Assembly (NCBI GenBank): GCA_001770785.1
Contig: MERZ01000005.1
Location: forward strand, 1 to 11,081
Reading direction: 5' to 3'
DNA length: 11,081 nucleotides
Source: Burkholderiales bacterium RIFCSPHIGHO2_12_FULL_61_11
GTDB lineage: Bacteria > Pseudomonadota > Gammaproteobacteria > Burkholderiales > Burkholderiaceae_C
Every line of letters starts with the position of its first letter. The stretch's first letter is position 1. A program made the position numbers and the translations under genes. The notes beneath the pieces were generated by a model. It did no database searches. It had not been told where the DNA came from and saw only the letters and a list, made by a program, of their open reading frames with translations. Of this stretch, positions 2,621 to 11,081 are shown piece by piece.

Positions 2621-3946
2621 ATGGCCCAGCGAAATCCCATGAAACTTTTCCCCTATGGCCACGCCACCCATCCCCAATGGCCGATGGCGGCGGCCCTGGT
2701 GCTGGCGCAGTTGCGTGGCTACCTGGCTTTACCCGGCTATGCCCATGCGCCCACGCTGGCGCTGCTTTACATCACCGATCACTACGCCGCCCAGGCGCAG
2801 GACATTCTCGATCACTTGAGCGCAGAGCTGCCTTTCATTACCGACTGGAGCGGCACGGTGGGCGTAGGCATTGCCTCCAACAATGTCGAGTATTTTGACG
2901 AGCCGGCACTCGCCGTGATGCTGTGCGAACTGCCGCACGACCAGTACCGCGTATTTTCCGGCGTGTCGCCCCTGCCTTCCTCCAGCACATTGGCCAGCGG
3001 TGGCCGCTTCAAGGCGCATACCGCGCTGGTGCATGCCGATGCCGCCACGCCCGATGTGGCCGAGCTGATTGAGGAGATGGCCCAGCGCACTGACAGCGGC
3101 TACGTCTTTGGCGGGCTGGCGTCCAGCCGCTTTGGCAGCGTGCAGTTTGCCCTGAGCGGCCATGGCAATGTCAAGGGCCAGGGCGCAGCCGGCGGCGTTT
3201 TTAGTGGCGGCCTGAGCGGCGTGGCCTTTGCGCGTGATCCTTCTGGCAGCATGGTTCTGATGTCGCGGGTCACCCAAGGCTGCCGGCCGGTCTCCGTTGA
3301 TCACGAAATCACGGCCCGCGAAGCCAATGTGGTGACCGAACTGGACGGTCAGCCCGCGCTGGACGTGATGCTGGACGATCTGGACATATCGCTGGACCAA
3401 CCGCACGAGGCGCTGGCCAAAGTGCGAAAGACGCTGGTCGGCTTGAGCCCCTCCGCGGACAGCTTGAACGACAGGCCGGCCCGGCAGCACGCCGGTCAGT
3501 TTGGTGCCGACGTGCTGGTGCGTCACCTGATCGGGCTGGACCCGGCACGCAAGGGCATTGCCATTGCTGATTTGCCCAGGGTGGGCATGAAACTGGCTTT
3601 TTGCGAACGCAACGCCGAGGCGGCGCGCGCCGACCTGATCCGGATATGCGCCGAAATTCGTGAGGAGTTGGAGCCCGAAGAGGTGACGCGGGAGGTCGCC
3701 AATGCCCTGAGCGCCCCTGAAACCGAATCGGGGCCGCATGCGGCCCGGCGCATCGTCGGTGCAATTTATGTGAGCTGTTCGGGGCGCGGCGGGCCGCATT
3801 TTGGCGCGCCCAGCGCCGAGTTGCAAATTGTGCGGCGCGCTCTGGGCGACGTGCCGCTGGTGGGCTTTTTTGCCGGCGGGGAAATTGCCCGCCAGCAGAT
3901 CTATGGCTATACCGGCGTCTTGACGGTGTTCGCCGCGGGCGACTGA
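2621..3946 (+). CDS. FIST N- and C-domain protein (predicted small-ligand sensor)
   Basis: This protein of up to 441 residues is built only of the FIST module, a predicted ligand-sensing unit found alone or fused to kinases and chemoreceptors, and proposed in the literature to bind small ligands such as amino acids. The N-terminal part has TDWSGTVGVGIASNNVEYFDEPALAVML (about 71-98) and then a Gly-rich FGGLASSRFGSVQFAL block. FIST_C is marked by CSGRGGPHFG (386-395) and GFFAGGE (415-421), followed by YGYTGVL near the end. There is no signal peptide, membrane segment or output domain, so it is probably cytoplasmic and acts through a partner. The start is uncertain: ATG 2621 and ATG 2639 (giving MKLFPYGHATHPQW) both have poor ribosome sites, and the second may be real. 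It follows phaM by 14 bases, and its last 40 bases overlap the convergent dadA. Confidence 0.85.
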   Translation: MAQRNPMKLFPYGHATHPQWPMAAALVLAQLRGYLALPGYAHAPTLALLYITDHYAAQAQDILDHLSAELPFITDWSGTVGVGIASNNVEYFDEPALAVMLCELPHDQYRVFSGVSPLPSSSTLASGGRFKAHTALVHADAATPDVAELIEEMAQRTDSGYVFGGLASSRFGSVQFALSGHGNVKGQGAAGGVFSGGLSGVAFARDPSGSMVLMSRVTQGCRPVSVDHEITAREANVVTELDGQPALDVMLDDLDISLDQPHEALAKVRKTLVGLSPSADSLNDRPARQHAGQFGADVLVRHLIGLDPARKGIAIADLPRVGMKLAFCERNAEAARADLIRICAEIREELEPEEVTREVANALSAPETESGPHAARRIVGAIYVSCSGRGGPHFGAPSAELQIVRRALGDVPLVGFFAGGEIARQQIYGYTGVLTVFAAGD

Positions 3947-5250
3947 GGGCTGGCGGGCATCCCGGGCCCAACGCCCAGGAACGCAAAGTCGACCTCGGGC
4001 AGCTGCCCGTTCACAATGTCGGCCAGCGCCTTGCCCGAGCCACAGGCGTGGGTCCAGCCCAGCGTGCCGTGGCCGGTGTTGAGAAACAGGTTGCCCACGC
4101 GGCTCCTGCCGATCAGCGGAACATTGCTGGGCGTGGATGGGCGCAGGCCGCTCCAGAATTGTCCGCGGCTCAGGTCCGCCGCGCCGGGAAAGAGCGCTTG
4201 CGTGCGTTGCAGCAAGCCCTGGCAGCGCGTTTCGTTGAGCTGGCGCCCGTAGCCGCCCAACTCGGCCGTGCCGGCAATCCGCAGGCGGTCTTCAGTGATT
4301 CCGTGGCTGTCCTGGCTGGTGTAGCGGCTGAACACCAGCTTGTATTCATCGTCGGTCAGCGACACCTGGTAGGCGCGCGAAGGGTCGATCACCGGCGCCG
4401 TGAGCGAGTAGCCCTTGGCCGGGTAAATGGGAAGTTTGAGTCCCAGCGGCGCAGCCAGCGCCGGACTGAAGCTGCCGGCGGCCAGCACGTAGTTGTCGGC
4501 GTTCAGTTGCACATAGCGGCCAGTGGGGTCGGTCGCCTCCACATGGCTGACCTGCTCGCCCGCACGCACCAGCCGCGTGATGTGGTGGCTCATCAAAAAG
4601 CGCACGCCGCGCTCCTCGCAGAGCCTGGCCAGCGCCAGCGTGAACTTGCGTGCGTCACCCGACTCGTCCTGGGCGGTATAGGTGGCGCCCGCTAGTTGCC
4701 CGCGGATGTGGGCCAGCGCGGGCTCGATCATCACCGCTTCCTCGGGCGAGATCACGCGGCGCTCGCAGCCGAGCTCGCACATCTGGCGTGCCGGTTCCAA
4801 TGCTCCGTCGAACTCCTTTTGCGACGTGTAGAAGTGCAGGATGCCCTGCATGCGCTGGTCGTACTCAATGCCCGTGTCGCGCCGCAGCTGCTGCAGCATG
4901 GTGCGGCTGTAGCTGCCCAGCCGCACCAGCTGCGCCATGTTGTGGCGCGTGCGCGCGGGCGTGCATTCGCGCAGGAACTGCAGGGCCCAGGCCCATTGGT
5001 GGGGATCGGCCCGAAGCCGGAACAGCAGCGGCGCATCTTCCCGCGCAAGCCACTTGAGCACCTTGAGCGGCGCGCTCGGGTTGGCCCAGGGTTCGGCGTG
5101 GCAGACCGAGATTTGCCCGCCATTGGCGTGGCTGGTCTCAGCGGCAGGCGAGGCTTGCCGGTCAATCACGGTCACTTCATGGCCAAGCTGGGAGAGGTAC
5201 CACGCCGAGCTGACACCAAGCAGGCCGCTGCCGAGAACGAGAACGCGCAT
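3907..5250 (-). CDS. dadA: D-amino acid dehydrogenase (DadA-type FAD oxidoreductase)
   Basis: This 447-residue flavoprotein of the DAO/DadA family oxidises D-amino acids (classically D-alanine) to the 2-oxo acid and ammonia, passing electrons to the respiratory chain at the inner membrane. The dinucleotide-binding motif GSGLLG is at residues 7-12, and the ribose-binding acidic residue D30 ends VTVID. ETSHANGGQIS (38-48) and GHGTLGWTHACGSG (393-406) are strong DadA hallmarks; the last is usually GWTMACGSG, so H replaces M here. The length is close to E. coli DadA (432), with a C-terminal extension of about 15 residues (ASPQSPAANTVKTPV) encoded in the overlap with the FIST gene. A GGAAA ribosome site lies 10 bases before the ATG. 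DadA paralogues are common in Comamonadaceae, so substrate preference (D-Ala or another D-amino acid) is open. No alr/dadX racemase or Lrp gene is adjacent. Confidence 0.9.
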   Translation of the reverse strand: MRVLVLGSGLLGVSSAWYLSQLGHEVTVIDRQASPAAETSHANGGQISVCHAEPWANPSAPLKVLKWLAREDAPLLFRLRADPHQWAWALQFLRECTPARTRHNMAQLVRLGSYSRTMLQQLRRDTGIEYDQRMQGILHFYTSQKEFDGALEPARQMCELGCERRVISPEEAVMIEPALAHIRGQLAGATYTAQDESGDARKFTLALARLCEERGVRFLMSHHITRLVRAGEQVSHVEATDPTGRYVQLNADNYVLAAGSFSPALAAPLGLKLPIYPAKGYSLTAPVIDPSRAYQVSLTDDEYKLVFSRYTSQDSHGITEDRLRIAGTAELGGYGRQLNETRCQGLLQRTQALFPGAADLSRGQFWSGLRPSTPSNVPLIGRSRVGNLFLNTGHGTLGWTHACGSGKALADIVNGQLPEVDFAFLGVGPGMPASPQSPAANTVKTPV

Positions 5251-5297
5251 TTTAATAAGCTTTCCAATAGGTCGCCCGTATGGTCTGGGCGTTACCA

Positions 5298-5314
5298 GCT
5301 ATTATAAATATAGC
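5298..5314 (-). promoter_or_regulatory. dadA promoter -10 box inside a GCTAT/ATAGC inverted repeat
   Basis: Read on the minus strand, a perfect TATAAT occupies 5306-5301, which would start transcription near 5294 and give dadA a leader of about 44 bases. No good -35 hexamer is visible 15-18 bases upstream, suggesting activator dependence. The box lies inside an inverted repeat, GCTAT-N7-ATAGC (5298-5314), that could be a regulator site. Similar AT-rich GCTAT...ATAGC units recur in Comamonadaceae genomes as I recall them, so it might instead be part of a dispersed repeat. Confidence 0.45.
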
Positions 5315-5652
5315 AATCATGGGCTGGCTGCTTCGGCACATCACACGCATTTTTTGGGGTATGACGGCTTTGCTGTCGCCTGCGCCGCAGCATCGCCCGA
5401 CCAGCGAGGCGATGCCACGCGGTGTGCCCGGATTGGTCGATTATGCTGCGACTAACCCTGACAATAAAAGCGGAGGGTCCTTCATTGATTTCACTGTGAT
5501 TTTTCGCCCAAGCCAGCCGGCTGGAGTAGATGAGCAATGGGCGGACCACAGATATCCTGCAGCGCGCCTACAAGGACTACGGTGATAGCCGCCATGAACG
5601 ACGGGCAGATCTGTATCTCTTGCTTTTCAGCACCGCATGTGATAACTTTAAT
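5315..5652. other. gene-free intergenic stretch between dadA and the transporter operon
   Basis: No convincing gene is present. The short open frames here carry no recognisable domain and no good ribosome site. GGAGG at 5471-5475 is followed by a frame that stops after a few codons. Two inverted repeats are visible: TTGGTCG and CGACTAA around 9 bases (5433-5455, one mismatch), and a perfect 12-base palindrome CCAGCCGGCTGG (5513-5524). Neither is followed by a T-run, so no terminator is called. Composition is less coding-like than the flanks. It may hold a decayed gene or long regulatory region, but nothing visible decides this. Confidence 0.4.
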
Positions 5653-5672
5653 ATGAATGAATATTCATTTTG
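5653..5672. promoter_or_regulatory. operator-like palindrome upstream of the transporter operon (site 1)
   Basis: AATGAATATTCATT (5656-5669) is a perfect 14-base palindrome. In the larger frame ATGAATGA-N4-TCATT it matches site 2 (10431-10454) with the same centre of symmetry. The right arm degenerates (TCATTTTG instead of TCATTCAT). It matches the form I recall for the acyl-CoA-responsive TetR repressor FadR of Bacillus, TGAATGA-N4-TCATTCA. It overlaps a possible -10 box (TAATAT, 5649-5654, with a poor TTCAGC 17 bases before it) and lies about 92 bases before the binding-protein ATG, a placement that suits repression. Confidence 0.6.
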
Positions 5673-5754
5673 TTGCATGAACCTCCTCTCGTGGAGAGTT
5701 CAGATGCCCGCAACCCCGGTTGAACCGCATTTCGTATAACCAAAGGAGACACAC

Positions 5755-6933
5755 ATGACCAGGTTCCATCAACAACTGCTCAGACTGCTGGGCATACTTA
5801 TGCTGGCGTTCGGCGCGTACTCAGCGACCGCGCAAGAAGCGATCAAAATTGGCGTGATTCTTCCGTTGTCGGGACCGTACGCGGATTATGGCGAGCAGAT
5901 CGGCAACGGCCTCAAGCTCTACATGCAGCAAAACGGCGATACCGTCGCGGGCAAGAAGATATCCATCATCATCCGCGACGACACTGGCATCGCGCCCGAG
6001 CTGTCCAAGCGCCTGGCGCAGGAAATGCTGGCGCAGGACCACGTCGATATCCTGGCCGGTTTCGGCCTGACGCCCAGCGCCTTGGCAGTGGCGCCACTGG
6101 CGACGCAGGCCAAGAAGGCCATGGTGATCATGAACGCGGCGACGTCGGTGATCACCACCAAATCACCGTACATCGTGCGGCTGTCGCACACCTTGCCGCA
6201 AATCTCCACGCCGATGGCGACCTGGGCGGCCAAGAACGGCATCAAGAAAGTCTATACGCTGGTGGCCGATTACGGTCCGGGCATCGATGCCGAAACCGCG
6301 TTCACCAAGACTTTTGCCGCGACCGGCAATCAGGTGGTCGGCAGCGTTCGGGTGCCGGTGACGAACATCGACTTCGCGCCCTATATCCGGCGCATCAAGG
6401 ATTCCGCGCCGGAAGCCATCTTCCTGTTCTTGCCTCCGGGCAGCGCCACCATTGGCTTCCTGAAGGCGTATAACGAGGGTGGCCTGGCCAAGGCCGGCAT
6501 CAAGCTGTTGTCCACCGTCGATTTCACCGATGACACCTTGATGGACACGCTCGGGCCATCAGTGCTGGGCGTGATCAGTTCGGGGCATTATTCGGCGGCG
6601 CACGATTCGCCGCTAAACAAGGCTTATGTGCAGGCGTATGCCAAGGCCTACGGCACCAAGCTACGCCCTAACTTCATGTCGGTCGGCGGCTACGACGGCA
6701 TGGCGGCGATCTATAAGGCGCTTGAGAAGACCAAAGGCGATGCCGACGGCGACAAGCTGCTTGCGGCGTTGAAGGGCCTGCAGTTTGAGAGCCCGCGCGG
6801 GCCCATCATGATTGACCCGGACACCAGGGACATCGTCCAGACCGTCTACTATCGCCGCGCGGAGGACCGCAACGGCAAGCTCTATAACATCGAGTTCGAT
6901 CAGATCAAGAACGTCAAGGATCCGGGCAAGTAA
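5755..6933 (+). CDS. periplasmic substrate-binding protein of a HAAT/LivJ-type ABC transporter
   Basis: This is a 392-residue extracytoplasmic binding protein of the Peripla_BP_6/LivJ class and captures the substrate for the permease encoded downstream. Residues 1-26 are a Sec signal peptide: a basic start, a hydrophobic core LLRLLGILMLAF, and a likely cut after ATA (24-26). The mature protein begins QEAIKIGVILPLSGPYADYG, the standard opening of this class, and two-lobe periplasmic binding fold features continue throughout (for example ILAGFGLTPSALAVAPLATQ near 100-119). The start is fixed by AAAGGAG at 5742-5748. LivJ-like proteins bind branched-chain amino acids, amides, urea, or aromatic and alicyclic acids. 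The dehydrogenase downstream and the shared operator favour a carboxylic acid catabolised through CoA esters, which is an inference. The gap to the next gene is 60 bases, the largest in the operon, with no terminator seen. Confidence 0.92.
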   Translation: MTRFHQQLLRLLGILMLAFGAYSATAQEAIKIGVILPLSGPYADYGEQIGNGLKLYMQQNGDTVAGKKISIIIRDDTGIAPELSKRLAQEMLAQDHVDILAGFGLTPSALAVAPLATQAKKAMVIMNAATSVITTKSPYIVRLSHTLPQISTPMATWAAKNGIKKVYTLVADYGPGIDAETAFTKTFAATGNQVVGSVRVPVTNIDFAPYIRRIKDSAPEAIFLFLPPGSATIGFLKAYNEGGLAKAGIKLLSTVDFTDDTLMDTLGPSVLGVISSGHYSAAHDSPLNKAYVQAYAKAYGTKLRPNFMSVGGYDGMAAIYKALEKTKGDADGDKLLAALKGLQFESPRGPIMIDPDTRDIVQTVYYRRAEDRNGKLYNIEFDQIKNVKDPGK

Positions 6934-6993
6934 TACCCGATCTATGGGCCAGGCTCGCCTCAAGCTTCCGTTGACTCAATTTCGACCCGAATC

Positions 6994-7863
6994 ATGCTGA
7001 ATTTTCTGGGTATTCTGTTCGACGGACTGGCCTACGGCACGCTATTGTTTCTGATCTCGGTCGGGCTTTCCGTGACGCTGGGCTTGATGGGCTTCATCAA
7101 TCTTGCGCATGGCGTCTTCGCGATGGTGGGCGGTTATTTGCTGGTAGTGCTAATGGGGCGCTTTGGGATGGGCTTCGTGGCCTCCCTCCCCATCATTTTC
7201 GTCGTGGTTGCGCTGGCCAGCCTGGTGTTGGAGCGTACGCTGTATCGTCCGCTGTACAAGAGCTCGCATCTGGACCAGGTGCTCATGACGGTCGGGATCA
7301 TTTTCGTCGCGGTCGCAGGAGCCACGTATTTCTGGGGTGCCGGCCAGCAACCCGTGGCCATCCCTGACTGGATGAGTGGGCAGTTGCCGGTGGCGGGGCT
7401 CGACCTGTCACGCTATCGGCTGTTCCTGATGGGGGTCGGGGCGATCATCACCCTGCTGCTGGTATTCGGTCTGGAACGCACCCGCTTCGGGGCGCGCGTG
7501 CGCGCCTCGGTGGAGCGGCATCGCACCGCCGAGGCGATGGGCATCCATGTCGAGCGCGTGTTTCAGCTCACCTTCGCCATCGGTAGCGGCCTGGCAGGCC
7601 TGGGTGGCGCGCTGGGCGTGAACGTGCTTGGCCTCGATCCAGGCTTTCCGCTGAAATTCCTCGTGTACTTCCTGTTGATCGTCGTCGTCGGCGGTCCCGG
7701 CAAAGTGATCGGCACGCTGTTGGCCGCGCTGCTTCTGGGCGTGGCCGACACCGCCGGCAAGTATTACGTGCCGGAAACCGGCGCGTTCGTGATCTACATC
7801 GCAATGATCGTCCTGTTGTTGCTGTTTCCGAACGGCCTGCTAGGGCGGAGCAAGGTCATATGA
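6994..7863 (+). CDS. HAAT-type ABC transporter permease, LivH-like
   Basis: This 289-residue integral inner-membrane protein is one half of the translocation pore. It is highly hydrophobic, with about eight membrane segments beginning directly at the N-terminus (MLNFLGILFDGLAYGTLLFL). The family hallmark NLAHGVFAMVGGY is at 36-48. The cytoplasmic coupling loop, RTRFGARVRASVERHRTAEAMGI (163-184), is the region that contacts the ATPases, and VVGGPGKVIGTLLAALLLGV (231-250) is the usual C-terminal signature. The length is typical for LivH. No clear Shine-Dalgarno sequence precedes its ATG, which is unusual in this operon, so expression may depend on reinitiation after the binding-protein gene. 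Its stop overlaps the next start by 4 bases (ATGA). Confidence 0.92.
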   Translation: MLNFLGILFDGLAYGTLLFLISVGLSVTLGLMGFINLAHGVFAMVGGYLLVVLMGRFGMGFVASLPIIFVVVALASLVLERTLYRPLYKSSHLDQVLMTVGIIFVAVAGATYFWGAGQQPVAIPDWMSGQLPVAGLDLSRYRLFLMGVGAIITLLLVFGLERTRFGARVRASVERHRTAEAMGIHVERVFQLTFAIGSGLAGLGGALGVNVLGLDPGFPLKFLVYFLLIVVVGGPGKVIGTLLAALLLGVADTAGKYYVPETGAFVIYIAMIVLLLLFPNGLLGRSKVI

Positions 7864-8882
7864 GCAAGCAAGTCGCAACCTCATCGATCGCAATGCCGCA
7901 CTACCTCGTGGCACTGGCAGCGCGCGAGCGCTGGAACAAGGTCGAGATCACTTTCTGGCTGGCGTTGTTGGCAGTTTACTTCGTGCTGCCGGGCTACCTC
8001 ATGTTCGCGTCGCAGATACTGATCACTGGATTGTTTGCGCTGTCGCTCGATCTGATCCTCGGTTATGCCGGCATCGTGACCCTGGGCCATGCCGCATTCT
8101 TCGGGCTGGGAGCCTACACCGCCGGTCTGCTCACCAAATGGGGGCTGGGCGAGCCGGTGGCGGGCCTGCTGATCGCCGGCGCGGTGGCGGGAATCTTCGG
8201 CTATATGACCAGTTTTCTGGTCTTGCGCGGCAAGGATCTGACGCGGCTGATGATCACGCTGGGCATCAGCCAGCTGTTGTATGAAGTCGCCAATCGCGCC
8301 ACCGACCTGACCGGGGGGGTGGACGGCTTGCAGGGCATCGCAGTGGGCAAGATTTTGGGGCTGTTCAGCTTCGACATGGGGGGCAAGACGGCTTATCTCT
8401 ATGTGCTGGGCGTGAGTTCCCTGCTGTTTGTGCTGGTACGCGCGCTGATCACCTCGCCCTACGGCCTGTCACTGCGCACCATCCGCGAGAACCCGCAACG
8501 CGCGTTGGCGATCGGTATTCCAATCCGTTCGCGGCTGACTAACATCTACACTTTCTCGGCGATGCTGGCCGGCATCGCCGGGGCGCTGCTGATGCAGACC
8601 ACGCAGTTCGTCGCGATCGACATCTTTAACTTTCAGCGCTCGGCCGATTTGCTGATCATTCTGATCATCGGCGGCGCCGCGACGCTCTATGGCGGATTCG
8701 TCGGCGCGGCCGTGTTCATGATCGCGCAGGACAGGCTGGCCAGCATCAATCCAGAATACTGGCTGTTCTGGCTCGGTATTTTGCTGATCGTCAGCACCTT
8801 GTATCTGCGCGGCGGATTGCTGGGCGCATTGCGGCGTCTGATGCAACTGGCGCAGCGCGCGCGAAAAGGAGGGCGCTCATGA
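7860..8882 (+). CDS. HAAT-type ABC transporter permease, LivM-like
   Basis: This 340-residue integral membrane protein is the second half of the pore. A short polar N-terminus (1-30) precedes the membrane segments. GYAGIVTLGHAAFFGLGAYTA (68-88) and TGGVDGL (151-157) are LivM-family hallmarks. The coupling loop is LRTIRENPQRALAIGIPI (205-222), followed by SAMLAGIAGALL and IIGGAATLYGGFVGAA. The C-terminus is basic (residues 325-340) and cytoplasmic. It overlaps the upstream permease and downstream ATPase genes by 4 bases each, so the three should be translationally coupled. Its last codons contain the excellent ribosome site of the next gene. The family is secure, but the substrate cannot be read from the permease. 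Confidence 0.92.
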   Translation: MSKQVATSSIAMPHYLVALAARERWNKVEITFWLALLAVYFVLPGYLMFASQILITGLFALSLDLILGYAGIVTLGHAAFFGLGAYTAGLLTKWGLGEPVAGLLIAGAVAGIFGYMTSFLVLRGKDLTRLMITLGISQLLYEVANRATDLTGGVDGLQGIAVGKILGLFSFDMGGKTAYLYVLGVSSLLFVLVRALITSPYGLSLRTIRENPQRALAIGIPIRSRLTNIYTFSAMLAGIAGALLMQTTQFVAIDIFNFQRSADLLIILIIGGAATLYGGFVGAAVFMIAQDRLASINPEYWLFWLGILLIVSTLYLRGGLLGALRRLMQLAQRARKGGRS

Positions 8883-9640
8883 ACGCCGTGCTGAGAACGT
8901 CGAATCTGTGCAAGTCCTTTGGCAGCATCAATGTCACGCAAGACTTCAATCTGGCCCTCGCGGTCGGCACGCGCCATGCGCTGATCGGCCCCAATGGCGC
9001 AGGCAAGACCACCCTGGTCAATCAGCTCACGGGCATGCTACGCCCATCGAGCGGATCGATATGGCTGGATGGCGAGGAGATCACCCACCTGGCGCAGGAG
9101 GAACGGGTGCGGCGCGGCTTGTCTCGCACCTTCCAGATCAACACACTGTTTGCCAACCTGACGCCGCTCGAAGCGGTGACCAGCGCCATCTGCGAGCGCG
9201 AGCGCGATAACTTTAGCGTGTTGCAGCGGCGCTTGTTCCCGCTCTCGCGGCGCCGTGCCGAGATCGACGAAGCCTACCAGTTGCTCGATCAGCTCAAGTT
9301 GGGACAAGACTGCCTGCGGAAGACGCACGAACTCGCCTACGGCAAGCAGCGCCTGCTGGAAATGGCGCTGGCCCTGGCGGTGCGGCCCAAGGTGCTGCTG
9401 CTCGACGAGCCAGCCGCCGGCGTACCCGAGGGGGAAAGCAATGATTTGTTCGACGTGCTGAGCGATTTGCCGAAAGATATCACCATCCTGCTGATCGAGC
9501 ACGACATGTCGCTGGTGTTCCGTTTCGCCCAAAGCATGACGGTCATGGTCGCCGGCGCTGAACTGGTATCGGGCACGCCGGCCGAGATTGCGCAGGACCC
9601 GCGCGTGCGCGAAGTCTATCTGGGGAAGGGACATGTCTGA
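8879..9640 (+). CDS. HAAT-type ABC transporter ATP-binding protein, LivG-like
   Basis: This 253-residue cytoplasmic ATPase is one of two that power uptake. In order it has Walker A GPNGAGKTT (37-45), Q-loop Q86 in SRTFQ, signature region LAYGKQRLLE (152-161), Walker B KVLLLDEP (171-178) and switch histidine H208 in LIEHD. The LivG family uses SYGQQR rather than LSGGQ, and here the first residue is A, giving AYGKQ. The D-loop is also altered: AAGVPEGES where relatives usually have AAGLNPEE or similar. All catalytic residues remain, so it is probably active. A perfect ribosome site, AAGGAGG, at 8866-8872 lies six bases before the start. The gene overlaps the permease by 4 bases and the second ATPase by 8. 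Confidence 0.92.
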   Translation: MNAVLRTSNLCKSFGSINVTQDFNLALAVGTRHALIGPNGAGKTTLVNQLTGMLRPSSGSIWLDGEEITHLAQEERVRRGLSRTFQINTLFANLTPLEAVTSAICERERDNFSVLQRRLFPLSRRRAEIDEAYQLLDQLKLGQDCLRKTHELAYGKQRLLEMALALAVRPKVLLLDEPAAGVPEGESNDLFDVLSDLPKDITILLIEHDMSLVFRFAQSMTVMVAGAELVSGTPAEIAQDPRVREVYLGKGHV

Positions 9641-10346
9641 GATGCTCTCTTTGGAAAACGTCGTGGCCGGTTACGGCGAGGCCAAAGTGCTGGACGGCTG
9701 CACCTTGTCGCTGCATGACGGCGAAAGCCTGGCCGTTCTGGGACGCAACGGCGTCGGCAAAAGCACACTGTTGATGACGCTGATGGGGCACACGCGGGTG
9801 CACAGCGGCGCCATCCGCTGGCTGGGGCGGGACCTGGCCGGCATTGCGCCGCATCGCCGCGCCGGCATTGGCCTGGGCTGGGTGCCACAGGAGCGGGAAA
9901 TCTTTGCCTCGCTGACCGTGGAAGAAAACTTGAGCATCACTGCACTGCCCGGCAAATGGGACCTGACGCGCATTTACGGACTGTTTCCGAGATTGAAGGA
10001 GCGGCGCCGCAACTGGGGCAACGAACTGTCCGGCGGCGAACAGCAGATGCTGGCGATCGGTCGGGCGCTGATGCTGAATCCGAAACTGCTGTTGCTGGAT
10101 GAACCGCTCGAAGGACTGGCGCCGGTGATCGTCGAGCAACTGTGCGAGGCGATCGGGCGCATGGTCAAGGAGGAAGGACAGGCGCTGGTGCTGGTCGAGC
10201 AGCGCGCGGAGCAGGCGCTGCAACTCACGCATCGCTGCGTAGTGCTGGAACGCGGCCGGATCGTACACGTCGCCGACAGCCCGACCCAGCTTCAGGACAT
10301 GGCGATGCTCGACAAGTGGGTCGGGGTGCGTTTGTCAGAAGTTTAG
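9633..10346 (+). CDS. HAAT-type ABC transporter ATP-binding protein, LivF-like
   Basis: This is a 237-residue cytoplasmic ATPase, the partner of the LivG-like subunit. Walker A is GRNGVGKST (37-45), the Q-loop is PQERE (Q86), the signature is a full LSGGEQQ (132-138), and Walker B is KLLLLDEP (151-158). EGLAPVI follows as D-loop, and VEQRA (188-192) has Q190 in place of the switch histidine, which is normal for LivF proteins. The start at 9633 overlaps the upstream stop by 8 bases and has GGGGAA just before it. An earlier in-frame ATG at 9588 would add 15 unrelated residues. It is the last gene of the operon, and no strong terminator hairpin is visible in the next 100 bases. Confidence 0.92.
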   Translation: MSEMLSLENVVAGYGEAKVLDGCTLSLHDGESLAVLGRNGVGKSTLLMTLMGHTRVHSGAIRWLGRDLAGIAPHRRAGIGLGWVPQEREIFASLTVEENLSITALPGKWDLTRIYGLFPRLKERRRNWGNELSGGEQQMLAIGRALMLNPKLLLLDEPLEGLAPVIVEQLCEAIGRMVKEEGQALVLVEQRAEQALQLTHRCVVLERGRIVHVADSPTQLQDMAMLDKWVGVRLSEV

Positions 10347-10396
10347 GCGCTCACGTCGAACTCACGTCAAAGAAGTCAAGGCCCGCGTCGAATCGC

Positions 10397-10425
10397 TTGC
10401 ATTTCTTCAGGACTCAGGTTAAATT
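10397..10425 (+). promoter_or_regulatory. weak promoter candidate before the short-chain dehydrogenase
   Basis: TTGCAT (10397-10402) and TAAATT (10420-10425) stand 17 bases apart, matching consensus at 3 and 4 of 6 positions. The site 2 palindrome begins six bases downstream, so a bound repressor would cover the transcription start. The AT-rich character compared with the neighbouring genes supports a promoter here. The hexamers themselves are unconvincing. Confidence 0.3.
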
Positions 10426-10430
10426 AGCAT

Positions 10431-10454
10431 TAATGAATGAACAATCATTCATTA
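10431..10454. promoter_or_regulatory. operator-like palindrome upstream of the dehydrogenase (site 2)
   Basis: TAATGAATGA and TCATTCATTA are perfect 10-base inverted arms around a 4-base spacer (ACAA), centred about 111 bases before the ATG at 10554. It shares its centre and 15 of 17 core bases with site 1 before the transporter operon. Size and symmetry are typical of TetR-family operators, and the form is the one recalled for Bacillus FadR. A MarR-family regulator, as controls bad/ali genes in Rhodopseudomonas, is an alternative. Confidence 0.7.
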
Positions 10455-10553: not shown

Positions 10554-11081
10554 ATGCGAATAGACGGCAAAACAGCGGTAGTGACAGGCGGCGCTTCGGG
10601 AATCGGCCGGGCCACGGTCGAGACGTTGGCGCAGGCGGGTGCCCATGTGCTGCTCGGCGACATTGACGAGGAGCGCGGCGGCGCGGCGGCGGCAGCGCTG
10701 AGGGACCAGGGCCACGACGTGCACTTCATCCGGCTCGACGTCACCGATGCGGCATCGATCGCGGCCTTCAAACTGGAAGCGTACCGCGCCAGGGAGCACG
10801 TCGATATTGTGGCCAACGTGGCTGGCTGGGGCAAAATCCAGCCCTTTGTTGAAAACACACCGGAGTTTTGGCGCAAGATCATCGACCTGAACCTGATGGG
10901 GCCGGTGGCAGTGACGCGCGCCTTCCTCGACCAGATGATCGAACGCGGTGCCGGCAGGATTGTCACCATCGCCAGTGACGCCGGGCGCGTCGGCAGCATG
11001 GGCGAGACGGTGTATTCGGGTGCCAAGGGCGGGGCCATCGCGTTCACCAAGGCGCTGGCGCGAGAAATGGCGCGCTACAGC
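10554..11081 (+). CDS. short-chain dehydrogenase/reductase, BadH-like (3' end beyond window)
   Basis: The first 176 residues of a classical SDR are present, and the gene runs off the right edge. The cofactor motif TGGASGIG (11-18) and D36 at the end of the second strand indicate NAD(H) preference. The catalytic set is N113, S141, Y154 and K158 (YSGAK). The usual NNAG is NVAG here (88-91). SDAGRVGSMGETVYSGAKGG (141-160) and AGW (90-92) resemble BadH, the 2-hydroxycyclohexanecarboxyl-CoA dehydrogenase that oxidises the ring hydroxyl in cyclohexanecarboxylate/benzoate degradation. This is from memory, and FabG-like or other acyl-CoA SDRs share parts of it. The start has AGGA at 10542-10545. The shared operator links it to the transporter operon, and further pathway genes probably follow downstream. 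Confidence 0.88.
   Translation, partial: MRIDGKTAVVTGGASGIGRATVETLAQAGAHVLLGDIDEERGGAAAAALRDQGHDVHFIRLDVTDAASIAAFKLEAYRAREHVDIVANVAGWGKIQPFVENTPEFWRKIIDLNLMGPVAVTRAFLDQMIERGAGRIVTIASDAGRVGSMGETVYSGAKGGAIAFTKALAREMARYS

What the first reader, a model, noticed from the sequence alone, without database searches (positions are those of the whole stretch)
5653..10454. One operator sequence in front of both the transporter operon and the dehydrogenase gene
Site 1 (5653-5672) and site 2 (10431-10454) share the frame ATGAATGA-N4-TCATT. They have the same centre of symmetry, 15 of 17 core bases are identical, and they lie at similar distances from the next start codon (about 92 and 111 bases). Site 2 is a perfect palindrome with 10-base arms. 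Nearly identical palindromes in two promoter regions 4.8 kb apart are unlikely by chance and define a small local regulon. The form resembles the operator of acyl-CoA-sensing FadR (TetR family) of Bacillus, suggesting a CoA-thioester effector. The regulator gene is not in the window.
Basis: partly seen in the sequence, partly recalled or inferred. Interest (0 to 1): 0.72.

Follow-up and report, generated by a model that had tools for sequence, protein, structure and literature searches.

The report
Shared TetR operator, aromatic-acid uptake regulon
Two almost identical DNA switches in this contig are best read as binding sites of a TetR-type repressor that turns on uptake and breakdown of ring-shaped organic acids together; the repressor gene, seen in related bacteria, would lie just past the end of the contig.

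Summary
The frame ATGAATGA-N4-TCATT occurs at only two places in the 3.77-Mb assembly, both in this window. Site 2 is a perfect palindrome with 10-base arms; 15 of 17 core bases agree. Related genomes carry the same operator, TGAATGA-N4-TCATTCA, before orthologous genes: pobA-liv or livK, the same SDR, an acyl-CoA dehydrogenase, a CoA ligase. A TetR gene lies inside or beside the cluster. In 399 genomes of the order, 6 have this TetR and 11 an exact site; 4 coincide (P about 5e-6), and the other 2 TetR genomes have one-mismatch sites. In 20 of 22 hand-chosen sites the best promoter match puts the -10 just before or inside the operator; 14 of 22 beat shuffles. The window is a whole contig, cut 528 bases into the SDR gene; in four relatives the TetR starts about 1.65 kb after the SDR start. 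The regulator is not a FadR orthologue, though FadR is among its nearest solved relatives. The right half of the contig is foreign to the genus (transfer or chimera). The CoA-thioester inducer is inferred. A regulon of a known kind, with an undescribed regulator.

The parts
5653..5672 (.). Operator site 1 (ATGAATGA-ATAT-TCATTTTG), imperfect palindrome, before the liv operon
10431..10454 (.). Operator site 2 (TAATGAATGA-ACAA-TCATTCATTA), perfect 10-base arms, before the SDR gene
5620..5652 (+). Promoter-like region of livK: TTTTCA-N17-TTTAAT (best score) or, by eye, TTGCTT-N17-TAACTT; the -10 ends just before operator 1
   Evidence: 0 of 200 shuffles reach the score; the simple consensus scan found nothing; inference
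10397..10425 (+). Promoter-like TTGCAT-N17-TAAATT of the SDR gene; -10 ends 8 bases before the 18-mer core of operator 2
   Evidence: 20 of 200 shuffles reach the score, so weak alone; one search found nothing; a TTGCAA-like box recurs before relatives' operators (by eye)
5755..6933 (+). LivK-type substrate-binding protein of a branched-chain-amino-acid-type (HAAT) ABC importer
6994..7863 (+). LivH-type permease
7860..8882 (+). LivM-type permease
8879..9640 (+). LivG-type ATPase
9633..10346 (+). LivF-type ATPase
10554..11081 (+). SDR dehydrogenase, nearest model BadH (TIGR03206, below its cut-off), cut off by the contig end after 176 codons; 68-76% identical over those 176 residues to SDRs clustered with the TetR gene in six relatives (59% in a seventh, L130)

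Best explanation
The two palindromes are operators of one dimeric TetR-family repressor. In relatives the repressor is encoded inside or beside the dehydrogenase operon (in four of them in the order SDR, enoyl-CoA hydratase, TetR), so it would control its own synthesis. Without substrate the dimer sits on TGAATGA-N4-TCATTCA, at or just after the -10 box, and blocks RNA polymerase at two promoters: that of an aromatic-acid type ABC importer (liv) and that of an operon that oxidises the CoA-activated acid by a beta-oxidation-like route (CoA ligase, acyl-CoA dehydrogenase, hydratase, SDR). A CoA thioester made by the cluster's own ligase would release the repressor, so import and breakdown come on together. 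Shown here: the two sites, their rarity, the shared operator and the TetR in relatives, and the co-occurrence. Inferred: binding, repression, promoter positions, substrate, effector, and presence of the TetR gene beyond the contig end in this organism.
For: Only two exact-frame places in the assembly, both in the window. The six TetR-bearing loci found in 399 genomes all carry the operator with 0-1 mismatch beside SDR, hydratase, dehydrogenase, ligase or TetR genes. In one search, 11 of 11 genomes (own, 6 with the TetR, 4 with a liv relative) have 1-5 sites at up to 1 mismatch and no reversed-control hit. Exact site and TetR coincide in 4 genomes of 399 (6 with TetR, 11 with the site), P 5e-6, relatedness not corrected for. 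In three Sterolibacterium-labelled MAGs sites stand before pobA-liv or livK, the SDR orthologue and the acyl-CoA dehydrogenase, and each holds the TetR. In 20 of 22 sites the best promoter places the -10 1-11 bases before the core or within it; in 14 of 22 at most 10 of 200 shuffled upstream sequences score as high (orthologous promoters are not independent). Recognition-helix motif G-L-I/V-Y-Q-Y-F/V is shared by the 9 aligned TetRs, and a wider pattern of mine by 113 of the 120 listed homologues. Of 80 loci kept around LivK relatives (197 found) none encodes the TetR at E 1e-12, and only L019 and L022 hold a site with 0-1 mismatch.
Against: No binding data. Site 1 is imperfect. The TetR orthologue is not in the assembled genome (best hit 32% identity, E 3e-7) nor in the 87 held genomes of the genus at E 1e-40. 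The simple promoter scan finds nothing at either site, and the promoter score before site 2 is reached by 20 of 200 shuffles. 6 of 399 genomes besides the window's own hold an exact site without this TetR; in two of them (G177, G371) it looks by eye like part of a longer terminator hairpin, the others were not explained. In one search, 2 of 60 relatives (G033, G050) have a one-mismatch 20-mer with no pathway gene recognised beside it. The one site of G438 is not in its SDR cluster. Two of 22 sites (L151 and the G046 ligase) do not fit the promoter geometry.
Confidence: 0.85

Rival explanations
1. The sites are operators, but of the MarR-type repressor BadR of cyclohexanecarboxylate (bad-ali) clusters.
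For: The SDR's nearest model is BadH and the relatives' ligase is nearest to cyclohexanecarboxylate-CoA ligase. A gene that looks MarR-like by eye stands near the cluster in L104, L149, L150 and L156 (no family search).
Against: The published BadR operator is CAAN4TTG (PMC9795900, passages). It occurs three times in the window, at chance level (mean 3.3 in shuffles), and at neither promoter. The model scores are below the curated cut-offs. A TetR gene lies in the cluster that the operator precedes.
Confidence: 0.04
2. The palindromes are RNA hairpins (terminator or attenuator) and not protein-binding sites.
For: Site 2 folds into a hairpin of -9.7 kcal/mol about 85 bases after livF. Exact copies of the motif in G177 and G371 look like terminators.
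Against: No terminator-like site was found at either place. Site 1 folds only weakly (-4.0). In relatives the copies stand before genes clustered with a TetR. The constancy of the arms is partly built in, because sites were picked by the motif.
Confidence: 0.03
3. Not exclusive of the best explanation: the two sites were a working regulon in the donor lineage but are a relic here. The block from about 5.6 kb to 11.1 kb is a horizontally acquired or mis-assembled Sterolibacterium-type piece without its regulator.
For: DNA matches to a same-genus genome run from 2627 to 5316 at 85.5% and stop. LivK is at most 60% identical in 30 same-genus genomes but 83% in a Sterolibacterium-labelled MAG. No TetR match in 87 genomes of the genus. 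The assembly has 416 contigs and 2.8% contamination.
Against: Site 2 is perfect and both sites keep promoter-like neighbours. The contig ends before the place where the TetR is expected, so its absence is untested. Third-position G+C does not differ clearly between the halves.
Confidence: 0.3
4. Chance similarity of two AT-rich palindromes.
For: 12 further three-mismatch places of the 20-mer exist in the genome.
Against: Exact-frame rarity, expectation 0.002, and the same operator in relatives.
Confidence: 0.01

Closest known systems
FadR (YsiA) of Bacillus, TetR family
   Same: Among the nearest solved relatives by sequence: 3whb (named fatty acid metabolism regulator), 1vi0 (same sequence in the printed alignment), and 5gp9/5gpa, which I recall as another Bacillus FadR. 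Recognition region of the same form (IA-x-x-AGV-x-x-G-x-IY-x-YF). From memory, its operator has the same TGAATGA...TCATTCA form; no held paper confirmed that. Acyl-CoA effectors known (PMC6449355 and PMC13176608, passages).
   Different: C-terminal domain of the present TetR is TetR_C_24; FadR-3 signature absent in 9 of 9. Target genes handle ring-bearing acids and their import, not fatty acids.
MbdR of Azoarcus sp. CIB (TetR, 3-methylbenzoyl-CoA)
   Same: Same logic: TetR repressor of a CoA-dependent aromatic pathway, operators over -10, -35 or start, CoA-thioester inducer (PMC4424350, passages).
   Different: Operator ATACN10GTAT; no copy with up to 1 mismatch in the window. Only weak sequence similarity (4uds, E 2e-6).
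BadR and bad-ali clusters (Rhodopseudomonas, Aromatoleum)
   Same: Partly the same reaction types: BadH-like SDR, AliA-like ligase, acyl-CoA dehydrogenase. Repression relieved by a CoA thioester (PMC9795900, passages and outline).
   Different: BadR is MarR-type with CAAN4TTG in most Gram-negatives; that paper reports TetR-like genes in Gram-positive bad-ali clusters. Here a TetR in betaproteobacteria, scores below the bad-ali cut-offs, no BadI among the best matches shown.
PaaR of Burkholderia cenocepacia
   Same: TetR repressor of a CoA-dependent aromatic pathway with several promoters (PMC2770484, passages and section 8).
   Different: Inverted repeat with the core ACCGACCGGTCGGT, unlike this one (compared by eye, not searched in the window).
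KstR2 of mycobacteria
   Same: TetR with CoA-thioester effector (PMC8700777, passages); solved relative (4w1u, E 1.5e-15). Some source names call homologues 'cholesterol catabolism regulator'.
   Different: KstR2-3 signature absent in 9 of 9. The ligase scores far higher against the cyclohexanecarboxylate-CoA ligase model (655-662 bits) than against the FadD3 model (259-278 bits).

Membership tests
TetR-family repressor regulon | Regulator with TetR_N helix-turn-helix | tested here: met
   In relatives, PF00440 above cut-off in the proteins scanned; not testable in the window itself (contig end)
TetR-family repressor regulon | Palindromic operator at the promoter of the regulator's own cluster and of target genes | tested here: met
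   By sequence only:
TetR-family repressor regulon | Direct binding and effector release | not testable with these tools
   needs gel shift
Bacillus FadR | FadR-3 signature of the ligand domain | tested here: not met
   0 of 9 orthologues (pattern from PMC13176608)
Bacillus FadR | Operator of FadR form | tested here: inconclusive
   The form matches what I recall; no held text gave the FadR consensus
Bacillus FadR | Fatty-acid beta-oxidation targets | tested here: not met
   Targets are liv/pobA, SDR, dehydrogenase, ligase, in single genomes bamB or a bamE-like gene
BadR / bad-ali cluster | MarR regulator with CAAN4TTG operator | tested here: not met
   No CAAN4TTG at either promoter; MarR-like neighbours in some relatives seen by eye only
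BadR / bad-ali cluster | BadH, AliA at curated cut-offs | tested here: not met
   BadH 260 bits on the full-length relative L104, cut-off 431 (158 on the 176-aa window fragment); AliA 655 and 662 on the ligases of L104 and L149, cut-off 792
MbdR regulon | ATACN10GTAT operator | tested here: not met
KstR2 | KstR2-3 signature | tested here: not met
   0 of 9 orthologues (pattern from PMC13176608)
Aromatic-acid HAAT importer | Substrate-binding protein of the aromatic-binding type | tested here: inconclusive
   Best solved match 4ey3, E 1e-126; that its ligands are hydroxybenzoates is recalled. pobA stands in the same regulated block in L019 (TIGR02360 above cut-off) and, by eye, in L155

The most novel reading that the evidence does not exclude
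An undescribed group of TetR repressors in betaproteobacteria controls both the uptake and the CoA-dependent breakdown of ring-bearing acids. [quoted passage not shown] The whole transport-plus-switch block moves between families, here into another genus of the same order.
Probability: 0.3. Interest if true: 0.6.

Novelty: new member of a known kind. Interest (0 to 1): 0.42.

Why it matters
It gives an operator sequence, a regulator and target genes that can be tested directly for a group of TetR proteins with 650 homologues at E 1e-30 or better; among the 120 listed, the names given are generic or 'cholesterol catabolism regulator'. It suggests an inducer class and a possible biosensor for ring-bearing acids. 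The site before a bamB gene offers a handle on control of class II benzoyl-CoA reductase outside strict anaerobes and fermenters, where a review says it mostly occurs (PMC5400083, passages).

Tried and rejected
Text search for the operator letters found no relevant paper among those listed (20 of 207 listed; 9 of 9; 8 of 37, none of them with the operator). Reading the FadR-DNA structure paper failed: not held. Finding the rest of the SDR gene or the TetR elsewhere in the assembly failed. The site before bamB is not conserved: the bamB orthologues of 86-87% identity in G435 and G436 have no site with up to 3 mismatches in the 1.5 kb before them, so I do not claim a conserved class II reductase regulon. 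Homology of the junction 5251-5760 was not resolved beyond a weak match to the native side; no outside collection was searched with it.

Corrections to my own notes: checkpoint note 1 says the other three-mismatch places lie in coding sequence; that was unchecked then, and one search shows 6 of 12 inside ORFs, 6 outside. Checkpoint note 3 counts G283 among the hairpin-like sites; on looking again only G177 and G371 have longer arms. The list of 23 sites was chosen by hand with the motif in mind, so the constancy of its arms is partly built in; the one-mismatch site of G438, the sites of G033 and G050, the exact sites of the six genomes without this TetR, and shifted registers were left out, and further dropped the second L130 site. 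For three rows the start position that I gave is not a start codon (L155 pobA, L149 ACAD, L104 ligase), so those distances are approximate.
Full report
What is there. The window is one complete contig of 11,081 bases of an unnamed draft genome of 3.77 Mb in 416 contigs, 93.8% complete. Its right part holds a five-gene ABC importer of the branched-chain amino acid type (5755-10346) and the first 176 codons of a short-chain dehydrogenase (10554 to the contig end) whose nearest model is BadH. The two palindromes stand 83 and 102 bases before livK and the SDR gene.

Is it more than chance. ATGAATGA-N4-TCATT occurs at two places in the assembly, both here, with none for the reversed pattern. The 15 of 17 identity and the 10-base arms of site 2 are confirmed. 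Site 1 is imperfect: with 3 mismatches allowed the 20-mer has 12 other places in the genome besides the shifted register of site 2, against 2 for the reversed control. Of these 12, 6 lie in ORFs and 6 outside; none of the ORF starts printed beside them was recognised by eye as a gene of this pathway, and no family search was run on them.

The regulator. A search of relatives for the 20-mer with up to 1 mismatch hit 4 of 61 genomes: own, G046, and two (G033, G050) with no pathway gene recognised beside the site. In G046 an orthologue of the window's SDR (69% over 176 residues) heads a cluster SDR, enoyl-CoA hydratase, acyl-CoA dehydrogenase, TetR, with a CoA ligase next; exact 18-mer sites stand before the SDR and at the ligase start. 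Using that TetR, 6 of 399 genomes of the order have an orthologue at E 1e-30, and all six loci carry the operator with 0-1 mismatch in the cluster. The exact operator is found in 11 of 399 genomes; 4 of these are among the 6, P 5e-6. The handles that one search lists recur, but 373 genomes were not listed, and relatedness between genomes is not corrected for. The other two TetR genomes have one-mismatch sites. Besides the own genome, six genomes without this TetR have an exact site; in G177 and G371 it looks by eye like part of a longer hairpin, and none of the six was tied to this pathway.

The nearest relatives. Sterolibacterium-labelled MAGs give the best DNA match to the liv operon (77%) and 83% for LivK. 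There the operator stands before pobA-livKHMGF (L019; L155 by eye) or livK (L022), before the SDR, 20-23 bases from its start, and before the acyl-CoA dehydrogenase; the TetR follows the hydratase. In single genomes it also stands before a bamE-like gene (L148) and, with one mismatch, before bamB (L152). The latter is a class II benzoyl-CoA reductase subunit by its match to 4z3w (E 2e-231), with bamC next (E 5e-54). But bamB orthologues of 86-87% identity in two other Sterolibacterium-labelled MAGs lack the site. Over 23 sites chosen by hand with the motif, 13 of 14 arm positions agree in at least 22 sites (the last in 20), and the central four bases vary; part of this constancy is built in by the choice.

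How it works. Scored with a simple sigma-70 matrix (frequencies recalled), 20 of 22 sites have their best promoter with the -10 either ending 1-11 bases before the operator core (13) or lying within it (7); the exceptions are L151 and the G046 ligase, whose best -10 ends beyond the core. In 14 of 22, at most 10 of 200 shuffled upstream sequences score as high; orthologous promoters among them are not independent. For the window, site 1 is clear (0 of 200) and site 2 weak (20 of 200); the simple consensus scan finds none. A recurring arrangement, TTGCAA-like box, about 17 bases, TA-rich hexamer, then operator, is visible by eye in the window and in the Sterolibacterium pobA and SDR promoters. 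Steric repression follows by inference. The effector is inferred to be a CoA thioester from the target genes and from FadR, KstR2 and MbdR; nothing here tests it.

What the regulator is. By profile search its closest solved relatives are 3dcf (no specific name), then 5gp9 and 5gpa (which I recall as a Bacillus FadR), 1vi0 and 3whb (FadR of Bacillus subtilis, as I recall the entries), Mce3R and KstR2. The C-terminal domain is TetR_C_24 (one of the four proteins scanned there, P0091, scores just below the cut-off), and neither the FadR-3 nor the KstR2-3 published signature is present in 9 orthologues. So it works like FadR or MbdR but was not shown to be a member of either. BadR (CAAN4TTG), MbdR (ATACN10GTAT) and PaaR (ACCGACCGGTCGGT) have other operators.

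Host question. The left part of the contig looks native: DNA of a same-genus genome matches 2627-5316 at 85.5% and then stops, another matches 2637-5250 at 83.5%, and the D-amino acid dehydrogenase is 84-89% identical in these two; the other same-genus genomes searched have at most about 52% or no match. LivK is at most 60% identical in 30 same-genus genomes, and none of 87 genomes of the genus, own included, matched the TetR at E 1e-40. The tool warns that an empty answer without a known positive shows little; a TetR query of the same group did match. The right part was therefore either acquired or mis-joined. In four relatives the TetR starts 1.63-1.66 kb after the SDR start, in two 2.8-2.9 kb; the contig ends after 0.53 kb, so its absence here is not evidence.

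Negative controls. Of 80 loci kept around LivK relatives none encodes the TetR, and only L019 and L022 have an operator with up to 1 mismatch; three others have one at 2 mismatches. L025, with liv, SDR, hydratase and dehydrogenase relatives but no TetR in the locus, has no site with up to 3 mismatches in 21 kb. Its genome G438 has one one-mismatch site elsewhere, not before a recognised gene of this pathway; whether G438 has the TetR elsewhere was not searched.

Papers. Passages only: PMC5597230, PMC5400083, PMC5343134, PMC8700777, PMC4424350, PMC6449355, PMC13176608. Passages and outline: PMC9795900. Passages and section 8: PMC2770484. No paper describing this operator or TetR group was seen in the listings of searches, which cover open-licence PMC papers only and list at most 20 each; RegPrecise was not searchable.

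Noticed in passing
[quoted passage not shown] two other such MAGs lack the site at their bamB orthologues.
   Followed up: partly
window 5317-5640: Junction between native and Sterolibacterium-like DNA; no mobile-element gene recognised there by eye.
   Followed up: partly
L148:4165-8873: Exact operator 77 bases before a 1537-residue flavoprotein with iron-sulphur domains that resembles BamE/HdrA by eye.
   Followed up: partly
L149:9634-12108: Gentisate 1,2-dioxygenase, a fumarylacetoacetate-hydrolase family gene and a MarR-like gene (by eye) next to the regulated cluster in a Sterolibacterium-labelled MAG.
   Followed up: no
L151:6806-9127: One-mismatch operator before a 130-residue ORF without NCBIfam match, with a dehydrogenase near the glutaryl-CoA dehydrogenase model (439 bits, cut-off 470) further on.
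   Followed up: partly
window 2621-3946: 441-residue protein, taken by eye for a FIST-type sensor protein, without any NCBIfam match at E 0.001, conserved next to the D-amino acid dehydrogenase in two same-genus genomes.
   Followed up: no
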